DNA of 36,234 nucleotides from NCBI GenBank assembly GCA_019115045.1, contig DXEI01000141.1:1-36234 (forward strand), written 5' to 3'. Made by a program: the position numbers and the translations under genes. Positions 18,402-24,941 of this stretch are shown piece after piece. The number at the start of each line of letters is the position of its first letter. Position 1 is the first letter of the stretch. This stretch comes from Candidatus Gemmiger excrementipullorum. GTDB lineage: Bacteria; Bacillota; Clostridia; Oscillospirales; Ruminococcaceae. The notes under the pieces are model-generated. The model was not told the origin of the DNA, did not search any database, and saw only the letters and a program-made list of their open reading frames with translations.

Positions 18402-19460
18402 ATGGAAGCGTTGTCCTTTGGCCTGGCGCTGCAATTTTTGCCCGCCATACTGCTGGTGCTGGCCGCCCTGGCCGTGCCGGAATTATACGTGCGGCTCATC
18501 CGCCGCATGCTGGACGGCCTGCGCGCCCACCTGGCCGAGTGGCTGTATATCTTGCTGGACAGCTACGTACGCCCCACCGCACAGATCCTGCGGGTGCTGC
18601 TGTTGTACCTGGCGCTGGTCATGGCGCCGTTTGTGGCGCAGCACGCGCTGCTGATGAGCGTGCTGGGCACGCTGCGCGACCTGCTGGTGACGTTTTTTGT
18701 CGGCCTGGGCGCCTGGCGCGCCGCGCCGATCAGCCGCCTGCTGCTGAGCAGCGCGCAAAACAAGCTGGACCTGCAGACCAACCAGACGATGGCCCGCTTT
18801 TTTGAGAATATCTTCCGCGCGTTGGTCGCGGCGTTTACCGGCATTGCGCTGCTGGACCGCCTGGGCGTGCCGGTGGCCGGGCTGCTGACCGGCGCCGGTG
18901 TGGCCGGGTTGGCGATCTCGCTGGCGGCGCAGTCGACGCTGTCCAACCTGATCGCCGGCATCACGCTGGTCTTGGAGCACCCGTTCGGCATTGGGGACTA
19001 CGTACTGCTGGGCGACTGCGAGGGCACGGTGGAGGATATTTCCTTCCGCTCTACGCGCATCCGCACCACCGACAACGTGGCCGTGACCATCGAGAACGCC
19101 AAAGTCTGCGCCGAATCCATCCAGAACTTCAACCAGCGCAGCAGCCGGCTGTGGCAGTTCACGCTGGGGCTGACCTACGACACCCCGCCCGAACGCCTGG
19201 AACAGCTGTGCAAAGACCTGACCGAACTGCTGCAGGCCCAGCCCACCGTGACCGGCGCCGTGACGGTGACGGTAGACCGGTTCAATGAGTACAGCATCGA
19301 CTTGCTGGCGCGTGTCTACCTGACGACGGTGCCCTACGGCGACTACCTGCGCGAGCGCAGCCGCCTGAACCTGGAGATCCTGCAGCTGGCGGCCCGCGAC
19401 GGGTGCAGCTTCGCCTTCCCCACCACGACGGTGGACCTGCCGCAGCCCCCGGCCCCCTGA
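18402..19460 (+). CDS. mscS: Small-conductance mechanosensitive channel, MscS family
   Basis: The 352-residue channel releases solutes during hypo-osmotic shock. Several hydrophobic helices occupy the first 170 residues; the pore helix is recognisable as AGVAGLAISLAAQSTLSNLIAG, with the Ala/Gly packing typical of TM3. It is followed by the beta domain LEHPFGIGDYV, then GTVEDISFRSTRIRTTDN with a conserved N-x-ENAK-like segment. A C-terminal alpha/beta cage follows and a Pro-rich tail ends the protein. The ATG at 18402 has GGGAGG 7 nt upstream and matches the promoter position; the frame is open much further upstream but that part overlaps the ribU leader. Single-gene transcript ending at a strong terminator. 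Confidence 0.93.
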   Translation: MEALSFGLALQFLPAILLVLAALAVPELYVRLIRRMLDGLRAHLAEWLYILLDSYVRPTAQILRVLLLYLALVMAPFVAQHALLMSVLGTLRDLLVTFFVGLGAWRAAPISRLLLSSAQNKLDLQTNQTMARFFENIFRALVAAFTGIALLDRLGVPVAGLLTGAGVAGLAISLAAQSTLSNLIAGITLVLEHPFGIGDYVLLGDCEGTVEDISFRSTRIRTTDNVAVTIENAKVCAESIQNFNQRSSRLWQFTLGLTYDTPPERLEQLCKDLTELLQAQPTVTGAVTVTVDRFNEYSIDLLARVYLTTVPYGDYLRERSRLNLEILQLAARDGCSFAFPTTTVDLPQPPAP

Positions 19461-19590: not shown

Positions 19591-20079
19591 TCAATAATCG
19601 TTTTTGGCGGCCAGCCCCTCGCGGTGGCAGATGACCAGCATTGTGTCGGTCCCCTCCTGCGTGGTGAGGACGAACTCAAAATTGTACACGGTATCCAGCC
19701 GGTACTGCAAACTGCCGTCCGGCAGCTCGGTCACTATGTAGTCGAGGTCGACCTGCGGCATCATTTTGTCGTAGTAGAGGTAGAGCCCGGCGATGTTTTC
19801 GGCAAAGCGGAGCTCGACATCCTCTGCCTCGACGCCGCGCAGCGTCACGACAGGCACGCCCTCGACTTCCAGCGCCGGGCGGTCCTGCCAGTCGTTGCCG
19901 TGCTCGCGGCCCATCGCATAGGGCACCGGTTCCTCGCTGAGCAGGGTGCAGTTGCTCAGTTCCATTTCCGCGCCGGTGGCGAGCAGCGTCTGCTGCCATA
20001 CCGGCGTGGTATCCACCGCCTGCGCGCACCCGGCCAGCAGCAGCAGGCCCAGCGGCAGGCAAAAACAGGTCGGTCTCAT
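19591..20079 (-). CDS. Small lipoprotein of unknown function
   Basis: The 162-residue precursor has a short signal peptide and lipobox LLAGC with the modified cysteine at 18, so the mature part should be anchored outside the membrane. The mature domain (about 140 residues) is acidic and beta-rich, with repeating hydrophobic strands (VPVVTLRGVEAEDVELRF, GSLQYRLDTVYNFEFVLTT). I recognise no family. AGGAG stands 9 nt before the ATG. The gene starts 12 bp after the DinB-like gene and ends the ligase operon, so an extracytoplasmic role linked to that pathway is possible but unproven. Part of its 3' end is duplicated just downstream. Confidence 0.75.
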   Translation of the reverse strand: MRPTCFCLPLGLLLLAGCAQAVDTTPVWQQTLLATGAEMELSNCTLLSEEPVPYAMGREHGNDWQDRPALEVEGVPVVTLRGVEAEDVELRFAENIAGLYLYYDKMMPQVDLDYIVTELPDGSLQYRLDTVYNFEFVLTTQEGTDTMLVICHREGLAAKNDY

Positions 20080-20091
20080 ACAAAGTTTCTC

Positions 20092-20613
20092 CTAACGGTA
20101 GGGGTCATAGGGCGGGCGGGGAAACTCTTCCCCCAGGCCCAGCGTGCGCGGGCACAGGCCGGTCTCGGCCGCCACAAAGCCCATCAGCATGCCCAAATGC
20201 AGGTGCAGGTGGCGGTATTGGGACAAGATCAGCGTAAAGCGCGTCCACTCGCAGTGGTCCGGCCGCTGCAGCAGGTCCTCGTCATGCAGCGAGGTCAGGT
20301 ACAGAGACAGCTTGGCCTTGATGGTATAAAAATAGGCGTCGATCTGCGCGCGGTCCAGCCCCTCGGCCGGGTAGATGCTGAGTTCGTCCAGGCCGGGGGT
20401 GTGGATGGGCGGTTCGACAAAATCGTTGGCGCGCGGGTTGATGAACCACTGGTCCAGCATGTGCAGCATGTGGTAGACGTGCTGCCACAGCGGCGAACCG
20501 CTGTACGGTTTTTCCCACAGTTCATCCGGGATACAGTCGATGACGTTCTGGGTGTCCCACAGCGCGCGCACCGTCATCTCGGCAATGACGGCATGGTAGG
20601 ATGTCTCCCGCAC
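20092..20613 (-). CDS. DinB-fold (DfsB/BstA-like) metal-dependent protein
   Basis: The 173-residue protein fits the four-helix DinB fold. Histidines of the metal site are visible in PLWQHVYHMLHMLDQWF (H45, H48, H51) and RHLHLHLGML (H135, H137, H139). DinB-fold enzymes include bacillithiol and mycothiol S-transferases, mycothiol-dependent isomerases and the DinB-like half of ergothioneine synthase, so many use low-molecular-weight thiols. The GTG start at 20613 is chosen because GGGAGGGGGG lies 7 nt upstream; a longer frame from 20700 would run into a Pro/Arg-rich stretch and overlap the ATP-grasp gene. Its place after a glutamate-cysteine ligase and an ATP-grasp ligase suggests a thiol-transfer role. 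Confidence 0.75.
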   Translation of the reverse strand: MRETSYHAVIAEMTVRALWDTQNVIDCIPDELWEKPYSGSPLWQHVYHMLHMLDQWFINPRANDFVEPPIHTPGLDELSIYPAEGLDRAQIDAYFYTIKAKLSLYLTSLHDEDLLQRPDHCEWTRFTLILSQYRHLHLHLGMLMGFVAAETGLCPRTLGLGEEFPRPPYDPYR

Positions 20614-20650
20614 AGCGCCGCCCCCCTCCCCTTTTGGTCTGGGGCGTGCT

Positions 20651-20689
20651 GCCGCTGCGCCCCGGGGAAAGTATGCCCCGGGCGGCGGC
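20651..20689 (-). other. GC-rich hairpin between the ATP-grasp and DinB genes
   Basis: CCCGGGG (20661-20667) pairs with CCCCGGG (20676-20682), flanked by partly complementary GCCGC/GCGGC. No U-run follows, so this is not a good terminator; it may stabilise or process the mRNA. Confidence 0.4.
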
Positions 20690-20692
20690 GGT

Positions 20693-22024
20693 TCATGCAT
20701 CCACCAGCAGGGTGGGCAGCGTTTTTTCGCTGTACTGGCTGGAGATGATGGGGCTGAGCGACACGCGGGAGTACACCCCCTGCGCCACGCCGTCGTAGAC
20801 GTACACGCCGGTCAGGTTGTAGTAGCGGTTTTTGCCGAAGGTTCCGTCGGGGCCGATGCCGTAGTTTTCGGTCACATAGGGGCGGCAGAACGCCTGCAGC
20901 AGGTAGCCGGTGCGCGGCGTGGCGCGCACGATGGCCTCCCACTCGGCCTGGGTGCTCTCGACGCCGGCGTGCACCCCGCGCGACGCGTAGGAGTCCAGCG
21001 GCTTTAAGATCCAGTCGTCCTTATGGGCCAGCACGCGCGGGACGTCGCTTTCGGCAAACGTCTTGGTCAGCGGCACATGCGCCTGCACAAACGCCTGTTC
21101 TGCGGGCGTGAGCAGCGCCTGGGTCTGCGCCTCGTGCAAAATGCGGAAGATCGTTTTGTTGTGCACGAGCTGGGTGTGGAAGTCCCCCACCAGCAGCACG
21201 GCGTCGCCGCGCACAGCGGCCAGCAGCGCCGCGCAGTCGCCGTAGCGCTCCAAAATATCGCTGGTGACGGCGCGGCGGTAGATGGCGTCGATCCTGTGCC
21301 CGGCCGGGCCGTACAGCGCTTTGGCCGCGGCGTCATAGCGCAGGCTGCGAACGTCGCACACCTCGGCCTGCAGGCCGTTTTGCACAAAATGCCGGCGGAA
21401 CACCTCAAACTCGTTGACGGTGCCGCAGTCCAGAAAATCCACGATGGCCACATACGGCTGCTGCACGCCGCGCACGCGGGCGCAGATGCCGCGCAGCGTA
21501 TGCACCCAGCTGTCGAACAGCTCGCAGGTGCGGGTACTATGGGCGGCGCAGAAGTCTTTGTACACGGTGGAACGCTGCTGCGCCAGGTTGAGCTCGCGGT
21601 CTTCGTTCATGGCGCTGGTGCCGTCGGTGTTGAACTCGCAGTATTGGTAGGCGCCGGTCTCCTCGTTGTAAAAAAAGTCGATGCGCGCCATCGGCAGCAG
21701 CGTGCGCGACGGGTCGGCGCGCAGGATCAGTTCCTCAGTCACGGCGTCAAAGCCGAACAGCGCGCGGTAGGCTGCGTCGCGGTAATACGCCCGCATGACC
21801 TTTGCCAAAATGCCGTACAGCACGCGGATGTCGGCCGCAAACTGCGCAAAGACAGACGCCGGCAGCAGTTTGGGCATATAGCAGGTGCGCACATACTCGC
21901 CATGGTGGATGGCGGTGGAGGCTTTCATATAGTCCGTGATGGCGTCAAACTCCCGCCGGGTGCGCGGCAGGTCGGCGGCGGCCGCCGCCAGATACGCCCT
22001 GTGCAGGGCTTGCATGTTGTTCAT
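20693..22024 (-). CDS. Glutathionylspermidine-synthase-like ATP-grasp ligase
   Basis: The 443-residue protein resembles the synthetase half of glutathionylspermidine synthase (circularly permuted ATP-grasp). ARIDFFYNEETGAYQYCEFNTDG (113-135) matches the conserved R-x-D ... E-x-N-x-D metal and substrate motif (R114, D116, E130, N132), and the late DDWILKPLDSYASRGVHAG resembles the Lys-containing ATP-binding strand. These enzymes form an amide bond with a carboxylate activated as acyl-phosphate. The partner substrate cannot be told from sequence. The ATG overlaps the stop of the glutamate-cysteine ligase gene (ATGA), so the two ligases are co-translated and probably act in sequence. Confidence 0.78.
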   Translation of the reverse strand: MNNMQALHRAYLAAAAADLPRTRREFDAITDYMKASTAIHHGEYVRTCYMPKLLPASVFAQFAADIRVLYGILAKVMRAYYRDAAYRALFGFDAVTEELILRADPSRTLLPMARIDFFYNEETGAYQYCEFNTDGTSAMNEDRELNLAQQRSTVYKDFCAAHSTRTCELFDSWVHTLRGICARVRGVQQPYVAIVDFLDCGTVNEFEVFRRHFVQNGLQAEVCDVRSLRYDAAAKALYGPAGHRIDAIYRRAVTSDILERYGDCAALLAAVRGDAVLLVGDFHTQLVHNKTIFRILHEAQTQALLTPAEQAFVQAHVPLTKTFAESDVPRVLAHKDDWILKPLDSYASRGVHAGVESTQAEWEAIVRATPRTGYLLQAFCRPYVTENYGIGPDGTFGKNRYYNLTGVYVYDGVAQGVYSRVSLSPIISSQYSEKTLPTLLVDA

Positions 22025-23250
22025 AGGCCGGTCTCCTGCTCCCAGATCGTTTTGCGCCCGGCGGCCAGGGCGGCCAGCGGCGCCAGCCGGGCGCGGTCCT
22101 CGGGCGAAGAGAGGCGGCTGCGCGCCTGCAAAAGCAGCCAGGCCAGCTCCTGGGCGGCGGGGCGGCCGTAGACCCAGGCCCCGTAGCCGTCGCGGCAGAC
22201 TGCCAGCTTGGCGTTGGCGATGTCCACAGCGCCCATGCCCGCATAGTGGCGCAGCACGTTTTGCAGCGCCGCCTGGCTGCCGAAAACCGCCTTGATGAGC
22301 TGGGCATACGCCGCGATATACGGCGCGGGCATGCTGTCGGCGACGCGCAGTTCGAGATAACTTTTTAAGCGCACATCAAAAAAGAACATCGAGAGGATGT
22401 GCTCGATCTCGCTTTGCTGCAGCTGCGCGCCGTAGACCTGCTGCGCGGTCTGTTCGCCCACGTCCACGGTACGGCCGCCCTGCAGCGCCACGATCAGCGG
22501 CCGGGTGAGCACCGTCTCGGCATAGCGGGCAAAGCCGAAATCCGGTTCCATCAGGTGGGGCGGCACGCCGCAGCGGTCGTCGTCGACGTCCTGCCAGATG
22601 CGCGTGCGCACGCTGTAGCCGCTGTTGCGGTGGCCCTGGTAGTGGGCGGCGCTGTCGGTCAGCAGGGCCAGCAGCGGCGCCAGCAGGCAGGCCGCGCGCA
22701 TTTTTTGTACAAAGTCCTGCTCGCTGTAATAGTCTATGGACAGCTGCGTCGACGCCGTGGCGCGCATCATCTGGATGCCGCCGGCCCCGGTATGCCGGAA
22801 ATAGCGGTCCATCGCCTCATACCGCTGTTTGGGGATCAGCGGCAGGTCCTGCGCCCGGCGGGTGGGGTGGTAGCCCACGTTCCAGGCGCGCAGCCCGCGT
22901 GCCGCCAGCGTCATATCCAGCTGCAGGCGGAACTGGTCGTAGACCGCCAGCATGCGGCGCACATCGCTTTGCGGGGCGATGCTGACCTCCAGCTGGCAGG
23001 CCGGTTCCAGCGTGACGCTGTACTGCGCCGCGGTATACCCCATATACAGCCCGTCGATGGTGATGGGCGCATCCTGCGCGCGCTGCATCTGGCGCAGGAT
23101 GCCCTGCACCTCGGCAAAGGTGACGGGGTCCCCGCCCGCATGGGTCAGAAAGTGCTCTGCCTCCAGCCCCAGGGTCAGCGGGCCCTGCGGCTTGCAGCCC
23201 CGGCGGAAATAGTCGACCAGGGCTTGTTTTTGTTCGTCCAGCTTGGCCAT
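22021..23250 (-). CDS. Glutamate-cysteine ligase-like protein (GCS2 family)
   Basis: The 409-residue protein fits the GCS2/GshA-EgtA family. The N-terminal strand LTLGLEAEHFL carries the metal-binding glutamates E30 and E32. ITIDGLYMGYTAAQYSVTLEPACQLEVSIAP is the substrate-lining beta region, and MRATASTQLSIDY and RVADSMPAPYIAAY are also typical. Such enzymes join the gamma-carboxyl of glutamate to cysteine or another amine using ATP. The ATG at 23250 has ACAGGAG upstream. It leads a four-gene operon with a GspS-like ligase, a DinB-fold protein and a lipoprotein. A canonical glutathione synthetase is absent, so the end product is unlikely to be ordinary glutathione. Confidence 0.83.
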   Translation of the reverse strand: MAKLDEQKQALVDYFRRGCKPQGPLTLGLEAEHFLTHAGGDPVTFAEVQGILRQMQRAQDAPITIDGLYMGYTAAQYSVTLEPACQLEVSIAPQSDVRRMLAVYDQFRLQLDMTLAARGLRAWNVGYHPTRRAQDLPLIPKQRYEAMDRYFRHTGAGGIQMMRATASTQLSIDYYSEQDFVQKMRAACLLAPLLALLTDSAAHYQGHRNSGYSVRTRIWQDVDDDRCGVPPHLMEPDFGFARYAETVLTRPLIVALQGGRTVDVGEQTAQQVYGAQLQQSEIEHILSMFFFDVRLKSYLELRVADSMPAPYIAAYAQLIKAVFGSQAALQNVLRHYAGMGAVDIANAKLAVCRDGYGAWVYGRPAAQELAWLLLQARSRLSSPEDRARLAPLAALAAGRKTIWEQETGL

Positions 23251-23295
23251 ACAGGCGCTCCTGTCAGGGGGCGCGGCCGGTGGCGGCCCCCGCAT

Positions 23296-23307
23296 TGTTT
23301 GCAAACA
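23296..23307. promoter_or_regulatory. 12-bp perfect palindrome in the ligase operon leader
   Basis: TGTTTGCAAACA lies between the predicted start site (near 23318) and the ligase ATG. The position just downstream of the promoter suits a repressor operator. Confidence 0.5.
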
Positions 23308-23324
23308 TTTTTACAGTTACAGCC

Positions 23325-23353
23325 ATTATACCCCGAAACGCGCGCCGGCGCAA
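23325..23353 (-). promoter_or_regulatory. Promoter of the ligase operon
   Basis: TTGCGC, 17-bp spacer, TATAAT on the minus strand, leaving a leader of about 68 nt. Confidence 0.8.
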
Positions 23354-23399: not shown

Positions 23400-24941
23400 T
23401 TAGGACGCGCCGTCCTGCCCTTGCGGGGCGACAACGGTGACGGAATCCTTGCTGTAATAGGGCGTCAGGCCCCACAGGTCAGGGCCGACGGCCACATCGG
23501 TGTAAAACAGCAGCCAGGGGCGCTCGTCCGCCGCCAGCGGCGTGATCTCGGCGTTTGGCACCGCCGGGTCGTACAGCAGCGCCTCGCGCGCGTCCAGCGC
23601 GGCGGCAAAGCGCTGGGCTTCGCCGGCGGCCAGCTCATAGACGGCTTCCAGGCTGGTGGCAAAGCGGTTGTCCTGCCCTTCTTTGACAGTATGGCTGCCG
23701 ATGCAGCCGATGCATACCAGCATAGCCGCCGCCACCCAGGGCACGGCCCGCGCGTGGGCGGCACACAAGCGCTCGGCCCCGGCCAGCGAGTGGCCGCGCA
23801 CGCGTTCCAGCCAGCCGAAGAGCAGAAACTCCGACACCGCCAGCCCCAGCACAAAGGTCATCCACACGACGTTGAGCAGCCGCCCCGCGCCGATGCCGCC
23901 CATGGTGTAGGACGGCAGAAAGATCATGGCCCACATCAGCACAAAGGTAACGGCGGGGCCCGCCCAGGGGCGGCGGAAGGTGCGGTCCGGCAGGGCCCGG
24001 CTTTGCGCCAGGCGGCGCAGCGGCAGCGCCAGCAGCGCCAGCAGGCACAAGAGCGGCACGTCCAGCCAGCGGACCCACTGCAGCGCCGCCAGCACAAAGC
24101 TTTTGGCCACCGCCTCGGCAAAGCCGGCCTGCGCCAGGCCGCCGGCGCGCACCTGGGTGCCGGGCGCCGTGATGTTGATGAGCAGCCCCGCCGCCGCGGC
24201 GGCCAGCGCCGGGCAGGGCCAGAAATTGCGCCGCCGCGCGCACAGCGCCGCGGCCAGCGCCAGCACCAGCAGGTCCATGACGGCGACGACCTGGTGCCCG
24301 CCGCCGATGACAAGCCCCAGCAGCGCACCGCACGCCGCCAGCGCAGCGCGCCGCTTACGCGACGTTTGCGGCAGCGCCAGCACAAAGGCCAGCGCGGCGT
24401 TGAGCACCGCCAGCGCAAAGTACGGCTGGTAGTTCATAGCGCCGTTGAACCAGTACAACCCTTCGACCGGGGCGGGCATGCCCTGCACAAAGGCGTACAG
24501 CAGCAGCACCGCCAGCGCCGCCGGCAGATACTTTTGCTGCGGCGCCAGGGCGCGCACCGTCAGGCGCGCCGCACCGTACAGGCACGCCAGCAGCGGCGCC
24601 AGCACGCACAGCAGCGTCAGGCCGTACCAGGCGTTGCCAAAGATGGCCGGCTGCAGCGCCAGCACAAAGCCGGAGACATACAGCCCCTGCCAGTTGTGGA
24701 AATAATAGACGTTGGTGTCCCACGCGGCGGCCAGCAGGCGCGGCAGGTCCAGCCCGTACTGCTGCACGACGGCATGGGTGCGGGCGGCGTAGACATAATC
24801 ATCGGCCGAAGGGCGCGCGTAAAACGCCAGGATCACCGCCGGCAGCAGCAGGACTGCCGCCAGCAAAAGGAACCGGCGCAGCCAGCGCTTTTGCGCCGCG
24901 GCGTCCTGCCAGAGCCCGGTGTTGGAGCGTTGTTTTTCCAT
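23400..24941 (-). CDS. Polytopic membrane protein, DUF6056/GT-C-like
   Basis: The 513-residue protein has about ten or more hydrophobic helices. After the first helix comes FYARPSADDYVYAAR, a short acidic loop motif with D-D that is typical of large clostridial membrane proteins (DUF6056) and resembles the first-loop acidic motif of GT-C glycosyltransferases. The last 100 residues form a soluble extracytoplasmic tail. The likely role is transfer of a lipid-linked sugar at the cell surface, but donor and acceptor are unknown. The start lies 4 bp after the esterase stop with only a weak ribosome site, so translation is probably coupled. Confidence 0.65.
   Translation of the reverse strand: MEKQRSNTGLWQDAAAQKRWLRRFLLLAAVLLLPAVILAFYARPSADDYVYAARTHAVVQQYGLDLPRLLAAAWDTNVYYFHNWQGLYVSGFVLALQPAIFGNAWYGLTLLCVLAPLLACLYGAARLTVRALAPQQKYLPAALAVLLLYAFVQGMPAPVEGLYWFNGAMNYQPYFALAVLNAALAFVLALPQTSRKRRAALAACGALLGLVIGGGHQVVAVMDLLVLALAAALCARRRNFWPCPALAAAAAGLLINITAPGTQVRAGGLAQAGFAEAVAKSFVLAALQWVRWLDVPLLCLLALLALPLRRLAQSRALPDRTFRRPWAGPAVTFVLMWAMIFLPSYTMGGIGAGRLLNVVWMTFVLGLAVSEFLLFGWLERVRGHSLAGAERLCAAHARAVPWVAAAMLVCIGCIGSHTVKEGQDNRFATSLEAVYELAAGEAQRFAAALDAREALLYDPAVPNAEITPLAADERPWLLFYTDVAVGPDLWGLTPYYSKDSVTVVAPQGQDGAS

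What the first reader, a model, noticed from the sequence alone, without database searches (positions are those of the whole stretch)
19591..23353. Four-gene operon that may make and use a non-glutathione gamma-glutamyl thiol
One promoter drives a GCS2-type glutamate-cysteine ligase, an ATP-grasp protein like the synthetase half of glutathionylspermidine synthase (ATGA overlap), a DinB-fold protein and a lipoprotein. Known: GCS2 enzymes form gamma-glutamyl amides, GspS-type enzymes amidate a glutamyl-cysteinyl carboxylate, and DinB-fold proteins include thiol S-transferases. Inference: the pair makes gamma-Glu-Cys extended by an amine or amino acid, and the DinB protein transfers it. No glutathione synthetase is present, so the product could be a new low-molecular-weight thiol in a strict anaerobe.
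Basis: partly seen in the sequence, partly recalled or inferred. Interest (0 to 1): 0.72.

Follow-up and report, generated by a model that had tools for sequence, protein, structure and literature searches.

The report
Unrecognised glutathione-type thiol pathway in Clostridia
This anaerobic bacterium and many of its relatives carry a conserved pair of genes that very probably joins glutamate, cysteine and a third building block into a glutathione-like protective molecule, using a second enzyme that standard family libraries do not name; whether the product is glutathione itself or something new can be settled by one enzyme assay.

Summary
The four genes exist, all on the minus strand, behind one promoter whose layout recurs in 16 of 17 aligned genus copies, the window's included. 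They are not one unit. The core is two genes. The first is a plant-type glutamate-cysteine ligase: its family profile matches plant GCL full length (E 1e-89). The second is a circularly permuted ATP-grasp enzyme with no Pfam or NCBIfam family over threshold. The pair is adjacent in 25 of 29 clear carriers among 391 class genomes, one of the 25 being a fusion. The three carriers without the plant-type ligase all have an E. coli-type GshA; none of the 29 has both. So the second enzyme very probably uses gamma-glutamylcysteine. Its model (pLDDT 94) is closest to eukaryotic glutathione and homoglutathione synthetases, ahead of glutathionylspermidine synthetase, whose spermidine-binding acids it lacks. 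I conclude that the pair makes gamma-Glu-Cys-X, X probably an amino acid. Glycine (ordinary glutathione) is the likeliest single X; a new thiol is not excluded. DinB and the lipoprotein were seen beside the pair only in this genus, and DinB also occurs in genus members without it.

The parts
23325..23353 (-). Promoter: -35 TTGCGC (23348-23353), 17-nt spacer, -10 TATAAT (23325-23330)
   Evidence: Layout conserved in 16 of 17 aligned genus upstream regions, the window's included; the generic scan did not report it
22021..23250 (-). Plant-type (GCS2) glutamate-cysteine ligase, 409 aa
   Evidence: PF04107 E 5e-33; TIGR01436 plant GCL E 1.6e-53 but below cut-off; family profile vs solved plant GCL E 1e-89 over the full length
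20693..22024 (-). Circularly permuted ATP-grasp ligase, 443 aa, no Pfam or NCBIfam family over threshold; proposed gamma-Glu-Cys : X ligase
   Evidence: Model pLDDT 94; Foldseek: human glutathione synthetase E 6e-20, soybean homoglutathione synthetase E 9e-18, E. coli GspS E 4e-16; R114, D116, E130, N132, S137, Y249, R250, R251, R420 invariant in 74 of 74 rows
20092..20613 (-). DinB_2-family protein, 173 aa (GTG start)
   Evidence: PF12867 E 4.8e-7; orthologues 76-99% identical in 17 of the other 19 genus loci
19591..20079 (-). Putative lipoprotein, 162 aa, lipobox-like LAGC, no known family
   Evidence: ORF; no Pfam match; seen in 19 of 20 genus loci, in none of 28 other class carriers' loci nor of 80 named loci

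Best explanation
The two ligases form a two-step pathway for a glutathione-type thiol. Step 1: the plant-type glutamate-cysteine ligase joins the gamma-carboxylate of glutamate to cysteine, using ATP, to give gamma-glutamylcysteine. Step 2: the circularly permuted ATP-grasp enzyme phosphorylates the cysteine carboxylate of gamma-Glu-Cys, and the amine of a third molecule X displaces the phosphate, giving gamma-Glu-Cys-X. X is most likely a small amino acid; glycine (ordinary glutathione) is the best single guess, alanine, beta-alanine or serine the next (guesses). The ATP-grasp family would then be a separate, previously unnamed glutathione-synthetase-like family, mostly in Clostridia. DinB and the lipoprotein are add-ons of this genus. 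Shown here: gene order, promoter conservation, linkage, replacement pattern, predicted fold and conserved residues. Inferred: both reactions. Not known: X.
For: The GCS2 profile aligns end to end with Arabidopsis and Brassica GCL, E 1e-89. GCS2 and the ATP-grasp gene lie side by side on one strand in 25 of 29 clear carriers of 391 class genomes; gaps -26 to +42 nt with starts picked by script; in one of the 25 (L030) they are a single 864-aa ORF without internal stops. Distances of 72 pairs co-vary, Mantel r 0.92; 0.90 for 55 pairs without the window's genus. Replacement: 26 of 29 carriers have a strong GCS2, the other 3 have PF04262 GshA in 410-490 aa frames, none has both; 37 of 362 non-carriers have either (p 8e-26, dominated by linkage; among genomes without GCS2, 3 of 3 vs 27 of 352, p 5e-4). 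In 31 named genomes with no intact GCS2 found beside the gene, 9 have a strong one on another contig and 17 of the other 22 have PF04262, against 0 of 5 GCS2-positive controls. In most of these GshA is not part of the other GshA system noticed here: a GATase_4-type neighbour was found in 3 of 17 and 1 of 3. Fold: glutathione and homoglutathione synthetases rank first. The R-x-D and E-x-N motifs are those needed for full activity in Cp1B (matched by motif), which joins an acid to L-amino acids. GspS spermidine-binding acids are not conserved.
Against: I know of no measured activity for any member. Identity to solved fold relatives is only 11-16%, so the acceptor pocket cannot be read reliably, and I had no coordinates to superpose. 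The glycine-binding alanine-rich loop of eukaryotic synthetases is not evident, by eye, in the C-terminus. Of the 22 named genomes without a strong GCS2, three had neither ligase, one had only a broken GCS2 beside the gene, and one only GCS2 pieces at contig ends, one of them next to the gene; two of the 17 PF04262 matches are short pieces at contig ends. Ten class genomes have a strong GCS2 and no clear ATP-grasp gene, so gamma-Glu-Cys alone may be the thiol in some. No count is corrected for shared ancestry.
Confidence: 0.74

Rival explanations
1. The product is ordinary glutathione: the ATP-grasp enzyme is a non-orthologous glutathione synthetase (X = glycine). This is a sub-case of the best explanation.
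For: Human, yeast, potato and T. brucei glutathione synthetases and soybean homoglutathione synthetase are among its closest folds. Strong glutaredoxins (best E below 1e-12) are commoner in carriers, 18 of 29 vs 74 of 362, p 4e-6, as in genomes with any glutamate-cysteine ligase, 37 of 66 vs 55 of 325. None of the 29 carriers has a GshF-length PF04262 frame. Glutathione is reported from some clostridia (passages).
Against: The A-loop that holds the glycine carboxylate in eukaryotic enzymes is not recognisable; the Tyr over the cysteine is a Thr (T254, 74 of 74 rows; 22 of 24 in the broader set) if my reading of the S-loop is right. The glutaredoxin cut-off was set by me after seeing the table; at the tool's own E 0.001 it is 24 of 29 vs 246 of 362, p 0.14, and this genome has only a weak match (E 1e-6). 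Among genomes with a ligase the ATP-grasp gene adds nothing, 18 of 29 vs 19 of 37, p 0.46.
Confidence: 0.42
2. The product is a new thiol: gamma-Glu-Cys joined to an amino acid other than glycine.
For: The family is distinct in sequence from the glutathione synthetases in the libraries and PDB searched; the glycine loop is not recognisable. The closest solved sequence, Cp1B (E 4e-6 and 0.001), uses hydrophobic L-amino acids and was itself found to resemble homoglutathione synthetase in fold (passages). Recalled from a paper seen only in a reference list: a different Clostridium glutathione synthetase makes several gamma-Glu-Cys-Xaa.
Against: Nothing positive identifies another X; glutathione is the commoner outcome in nature (general knowledge).
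Confidence: 0.32
3. The second enzyme attaches a polyamine, as glutathionylspermidine synthetase does.
For: Profile alignment with E. coli GspS, P 5e-5, probability 67%, with the R-x-D ... E-x-N-x-D motif in register; E. coli YgiC and YjfC, reported peptide-spermidine ligases, are also fold relatives.
Against: GspS spermidine-pocket residues Asp387, Asp389 and Glu391 align with variable, mostly uncharged positions 200, 202 and 204; glutathione synthetase ranks higher in fold; GspS shows no Y-x-R at the aligned place.
Confidence: 0.08
4. The pair belongs to a peptide natural product or cell-wall step unrelated to a cellular thiol.
For: Circularly permuted ATP-grasp enzymes do act in natural-product pathways (Cp1B); distribution is patchy: 1 of 148 genomes drawn from the family, 31 of 391 in the class.
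Against: The shared gene is close to a canonical glutamate-cysteine ligase, and E. coli-type GshA stands in for it; clustering of ORFs in the 80 named loci showed no other neighbour cluster in more than 9 of them.
Confidence: 0.09

Closest known systems
Plant-type glutamate-cysteine ligase (Arabidopsis/Brassica GCL, TIGR01436; bacterial EgtA relatives)
   Same: Full-length profile match to solved plant enzymes, E 1e-89, with the main conserved blocks shared
   Different: Below the TIGR01436 cut-off (181.7 of 463 bits); bacterial, coupled to an ATP-grasp partner
Eukaryotic glutathione / homoglutathione synthetase
   Same: Closest solved folds (TM by query 0.57-0.73); R-x-D, E-x-N, a Ser at E+7, a Y-x-R and a C-terminal Arg conserved, matched by spacing
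   Different: 11-14% identity; no Pfam membership; glycine loop not recognisable by eye
Glutathionylspermidine synthetase (E. coli gss) and YgiC/YjfC
   Same: Same permuted ATP-grasp fold; ExNxDxxS motif in register
   Different: No amidase domain; spermidine-binding acids not conserved; donor expected to be gamma-Glu-Cys, not glutathione
GshF / separate GshF-like pair of Clostridium acetobutylicum
   Same: Adjacent ligase pair for gamma-Glu-Cys-Xaa in a Clostridium (content recalled; title seen in a reference list)
   Different: That pair is, from memory, homologous to the GshF halves; none of the 26 GCS2-type carriers has PF04262
Cp1B of E-64 biosynthesis
   Same: Best sequence match among solved structures; same R-x-D and E-x-N motifs
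   Different: Donor is epoxysuccinate; fungal natural-product enzyme

Membership tests
Glutamate-cysteine ligase, GCS2/plant type | GCS2 domain over the catalytic core | tested here: met
   PF04107 115 bits, cut-off 21; full-length profile alignment to 6gmo/2gwc
Glutamate-cysteine ligase, GCS2/plant type | Score over the TIGR01436 or EgtA equivalog cut-off | tested here: not met
   181.7 of 463.15 and 106 of 370.8 bits
Glutamate-cysteine ligase, GCS2/plant type | Makes gamma-Glu-Cys from Glu, Cys and ATP | not testable with these tools
   Indirect only: E. coli-type GshA replaces it in some carriers
Eukaryotic-type glutathione synthetase | Circularly permuted ATP-grasp fold of this type | tested here: met
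   AlphaFold model pLDDT 94, Foldseek E 6e-20 to the human enzyme; predicted, not solved
Eukaryotic-type glutathione synthetase | Membership of a named glutathione synthetase sequence family | tested here: not met
   No Pfam or NCBIfam glutathione synthetase match
Eukaryotic-type glutathione synthetase | Residues that bind gamma-Glu-Cys (Arg125, Ser149, Ser151, Arg267, Tyr270 of the human enzyme) | tested here: inconclusive
   By spacing from PMC2845819 (Tyr270 inferred from the T. brucei numbering): Arg125, Ser151 and Arg267 equivalents invariant, Ser149 and Tyr270 equivalents Gly and Thr; not superposed
Eukaryotic-type glutathione synthetase | Glycine used as acceptor | not testable with these tools
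   No assay; A-loop motif not recognised by eye
Glutathionylspermidine synthetase | Bifunctional protein with an amidase domain | tested here: not met
   443 aa, aligned only with the synthetase part of E. coli gss, residues 256-536
Glutathionylspermidine synthetase | Acidic spermidine pocket (Asp387, Asp389, Glu391, Glu392) | tested here: not met
   Aligned positions 200, 202, 204 variable; only the Glu392 equivalent kept, in 73 of 74; the alignment is remote
GshF bifunctional enzyme | PF04262 domain fused to a GshF-type ATP-grasp | tested here: not met
   No PF04262 in this genome
DinB-family thiol S-transferase | DinB fold | tested here: met
   PF12867 30.7 bits, cut-off 24.8
DinB-family thiol S-transferase | Thiol conjugation activity | not testable with these tools
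   Gene separable from the pair within the genus

The most novel reading that the evidence does not exclude
Hundreds of species, mostly anaerobic Clostridia, make a low-molecular-weight thiol, gamma-Glu-Cys-X with X not glycine, that has not been described, built by a plant-type ligase (or, in some, an E. coli-type GshA) and a new ATP-grasp synthetase family.
Probability: 0.35. Interest if true: 0.85.

Novelty: new variant of a known kind. Interest (0 to 1): 0.6.

Why it matters
To my knowledge the protective thiol of most gut Clostridia is unsettled. One short pattern of this ATP-grasp family, confirmed by tblastn, found 560 relatives in a collection of 84,980 species genomes (80 inspected). 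If the pair makes glutathione, annotation by known glutathione synthetases misses many producers. If it makes another tripeptide, it is a new redox buffer of anaerobes. One enzyme assay decides between them.

Tried and rejected
Rejected: the four-gene operon as a conserved unit (DinB and lipoprotein seen only in the genus). Rejected: filing the ATP-grasp protein as glutathionylspermidine synthetase (no amidase domain, spermidine acids not kept). Rejected as support for a new thiol: absence of GshB, because the ATP-grasp gene can itself fill that role. PF02955 was over its cut-off in 2 of 29 carriers, 36.8 and 31.6 bits in 281- and 290-aa frames; I did not identify these; one sub-threshold match (G364) lies in the ATP-grasp gene itself. 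The glutaredoxin survey depends on my cut-off and does not identify X. Neighbours in 80 named loci gave no consistent third gene; an ABM-type protein lies upstream in 9 of 80 (two of the nine checked by Pfam).

Dropped before counts: two weak ATP-grasp matches (G248, G553), nine weak GCS2 matches and one PF04262 match under its cut-off. Of the 560 relatives only the 80 best were inspected; several of their loci are cut by contig ends. For the Mantel test, pairs with truncated, fused or unclear ORFs were left out. In the genus, 20 of 22 matches were given loci.

Literature: ten searches over open-licence PMC papers; among the listed titles and abstract starts I saw none that described this pair (lists were capped). 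Seen: passages of PMC2940859, PMC5483285, PMC10207876, PMC6272389, PMC7278568, PMC4360819; passages and one section each of PMC2845819 and PMC12568646. Subscription papers are not held, so absence is weak. The content of Kino et al. 2007 is recalled; only its title was seen.
Full report
OBSERVATION. A -35/-10 pair with a 17-nt spacer at 23325-23353 recurs as TTG-N19-21-TANAAT in 16 of 17 genus upstream regions (the window and 15 others; L003 lacks it), against a mean of 0.08 per set of shuffled regions (mononucleotide shuffles, pattern chosen). The stricter consensus scan reported no promoter. Upstream lies a DUF6056 membrane gene on the same strand (23403-24941), downstream a convergent ORF ending at 19460.

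THE UNIT IS TWO GENES. In 20 genus loci, GCS2 is beside the ATP-grasp gene in 19, the lipoprotein in 19 and DinB in 18. Among 29 clear ATP-grasp carriers of 391 class genomes, this genome included, 25 have GCS2 beside the gene; one of the 25 is a single-ORF fusion. DinB and the lipoprotein were not found in the loci of the other 28 carriers (1.5 kb flanks) or in the 80 named loci (flanks up to 6 kb). Inside the genus, DinB is in 20 of 22 genomes with the ATP-grasp gene and 6 of 13 without (Fisher p 0.006): associated, but separable.

DISTRIBUTION. The gene is in 22 of 35 genus genomes but in only 1 of 148 genomes drawn from the family, this one (the only other genus member listed in that draw, G054, lacks it), and in 31 of 391 from the class, 29 of them clear. 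A scan of 84,980 species genomes gave 560 relatives, 80 kept. A few of the 80 records carry other labels (Bacteroides, Turicibacter, Coriobacteriaceae MAGs), which I did not check. The pattern suggests old horizontal acquisition by the genus (inference). The distances of the two proteins co-vary across 72 pairs (Mantel r 0.92; 0.90 for 55 pairs without the genus), which shared descent alone could also give.

STEP 1. The GCS2 family profile aligns with plant glutamate-cysteine ligase from end to end, E 1e-89. A related GCS2 gene elsewhere in the class, L178, lies among sulfur genes: an Rrf2-type regulator, a Cys/Met PLP enzyme, a PALP-type PLP enzyme and a NIL-domain ABC protein.

THE REPLACEMENT TEST. 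If the ATP-grasp enzyme needs gamma-Glu-Cys, carriers without GCS2 should have another source. In the class draw, 26 of 29 carriers have a strong GCS2 match and the other three, G483, G519 and G532, all have PF04262 GshA in frames of 410-490 aa; none has both. Among 362 non-carriers 37 have either (Fisher p 8e-26, dominated by linkage; limited to genomes without GCS2, 3 of 3 vs 27 of 352, p 5e-4; against frames under 600 aa only, 15 of 352, p 1e-4). In G532 the two genes lie about 5 kb apart on one contig. In the named set, 31 of the 80 loci show no intact GCS2 beside the gene, some because contigs end there: nine of those genomes have a strong one on another contig, and of the other 22, 17 have PF04262, two of these as short pieces at contig ends. 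The remaining five: three with nothing found, one (G594) with a broken GCS2 beside the gene, one (G586) with GCS2 pieces at contig ends, one of them on the contig of the gene and just before it. Five GCS2-positive controls had no PF04262. An objection is that GshA in these genomes might serve the other system noticed here, GshA with a GATase_4-type amidotransferase. Within the flanks held, such a neighbour was found in 3 of the 17 (G573, G584, G591) and 1 of the 3 (G483), not in the rest. All these genomes are related, so p-values overstate independence.

STEP 2. The ATP-grasp protein has no Pfam or NCBIfam family over threshold and no PDB match by single sequence. The family profile weakly finds Cp1B, a putative GspS and trypanothione synthetase. 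The AlphaFold model on 74 sequences has pLDDT 94 and pTM 0.92. Foldseek ranks human glutathione synthetase first (E 6e-20, TM 0.73), then soybean homoglutathione synthetase, with E. coli GspS from rank 10 (E 4e-16). R114, D116, E130 and N132 are invariant in 74 of 74 rows and align with the same motif of GspS; in Cp1B the R, D, E and N of this motif are needed for full activity (PMC12568646, section read). By the spacing given for glutathione synthetase (PMC2845819, section read), S137, R251 and R420 would be the residues that bind gamma-glutamyl and the acceptor carboxylate. That mapping is mine and rests on spacing, not on superposition. GspS residues Asp387, Asp389, Glu391 and Glu392 line the spermidine pocket (PMC6272389, passages); aligned positions 200, 202 and 204 are variable and mostly uncharged here, while the Glu392 equivalent is kept in 73 of 74. 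This speaks for an amino acid and against a polyamine, but the alignment is remote.

WHAT X IS. Not determined. Glycine is favoured by the fold family; the unrecognised glycine loop, the Thr in place of the Tyr over cysteine, and the amino-acid breadth of Cp1B leave room for others. Strong glutaredoxins are commoner in carriers (18 of 29 vs 74 of 362) and equally so in any genome with a glutamate-cysteine ligase (37 of 66 vs 55 of 325), but the difference is not significant at the tool's own threshold (24 of 29 vs 246 of 362, p 0.14), and this genome has only a weak match. It is at most a hint of a redox thiol.

CONCLUSION. A real, conserved two-enzyme pathway, very probably to a gamma-Glu-Cys-X thiol. 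In ten open-library searches I saw no description of the pair among listed titles and abstract starts.

Noticed in passing
L176:5138-7112, L177:6202-8290, L178:5990-7967, L170:4617-6606: A second arrangement: GCS2 (L176-L178) or PF04262 GshA (L170) overlapping a small class-II amidotransferase gene; L177 and L170 confirmed as GATase_4 (EgtC-like, recalled), L176 and L178 look alike by their N-terminus. No ATP-grasp gene of this family beside it. L178 lies among cysteine/methionine genes; L170 has similar-looking ORFs nearby, read by eye.
   Followed up: partly
L180:5212-8711, L143, L140: PF04262 GshA, a similar small amidotransferase ORF (L180, L143) and a 460-470 aa protein with weak GCS2-profile similarity form a cluster; the L180 protein has no Pfam match at E 1e-4.
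   Followed up: partly
L071, L072, L073, L075, L080, L081, L083, L092, L108, directly upstream of the pair or of the ATP-grasp gene: A roughly 100-aa protein of one sequence cluster in 9 of 80 named loci; L081 and L092 members are ABM (antibiotic biosynthesis monooxygenase) by Pfam. Possible accessory protein.
   Followed up: no
L070:2667-4994: GCS2 gene whose frame continues into a PBP_like_2 solute-binding domain, 775 aa in all.
   Followed up: no
L084:4934, L111:4907, L129:3276: Homoserine O-succinyltransferase-type gene just upstream of the ATP-grasp gene (L084, L111) or of the pair (L129); L084 confirmed by Pfam, the others by cluster membership.
   Followed up: no
window 23296-23307: Perfect palindrome TGTTTGCAAACA between promoter and GCS2 start; found also only in L003 among the 17 regions compared.
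   Followed up: partly
L182:5757-8237: An 826-aa protein in G248 with a distant match to the ATP-grasp family (25% identity); possibly another permuted ATP-grasp ligase.
   Followed up: no
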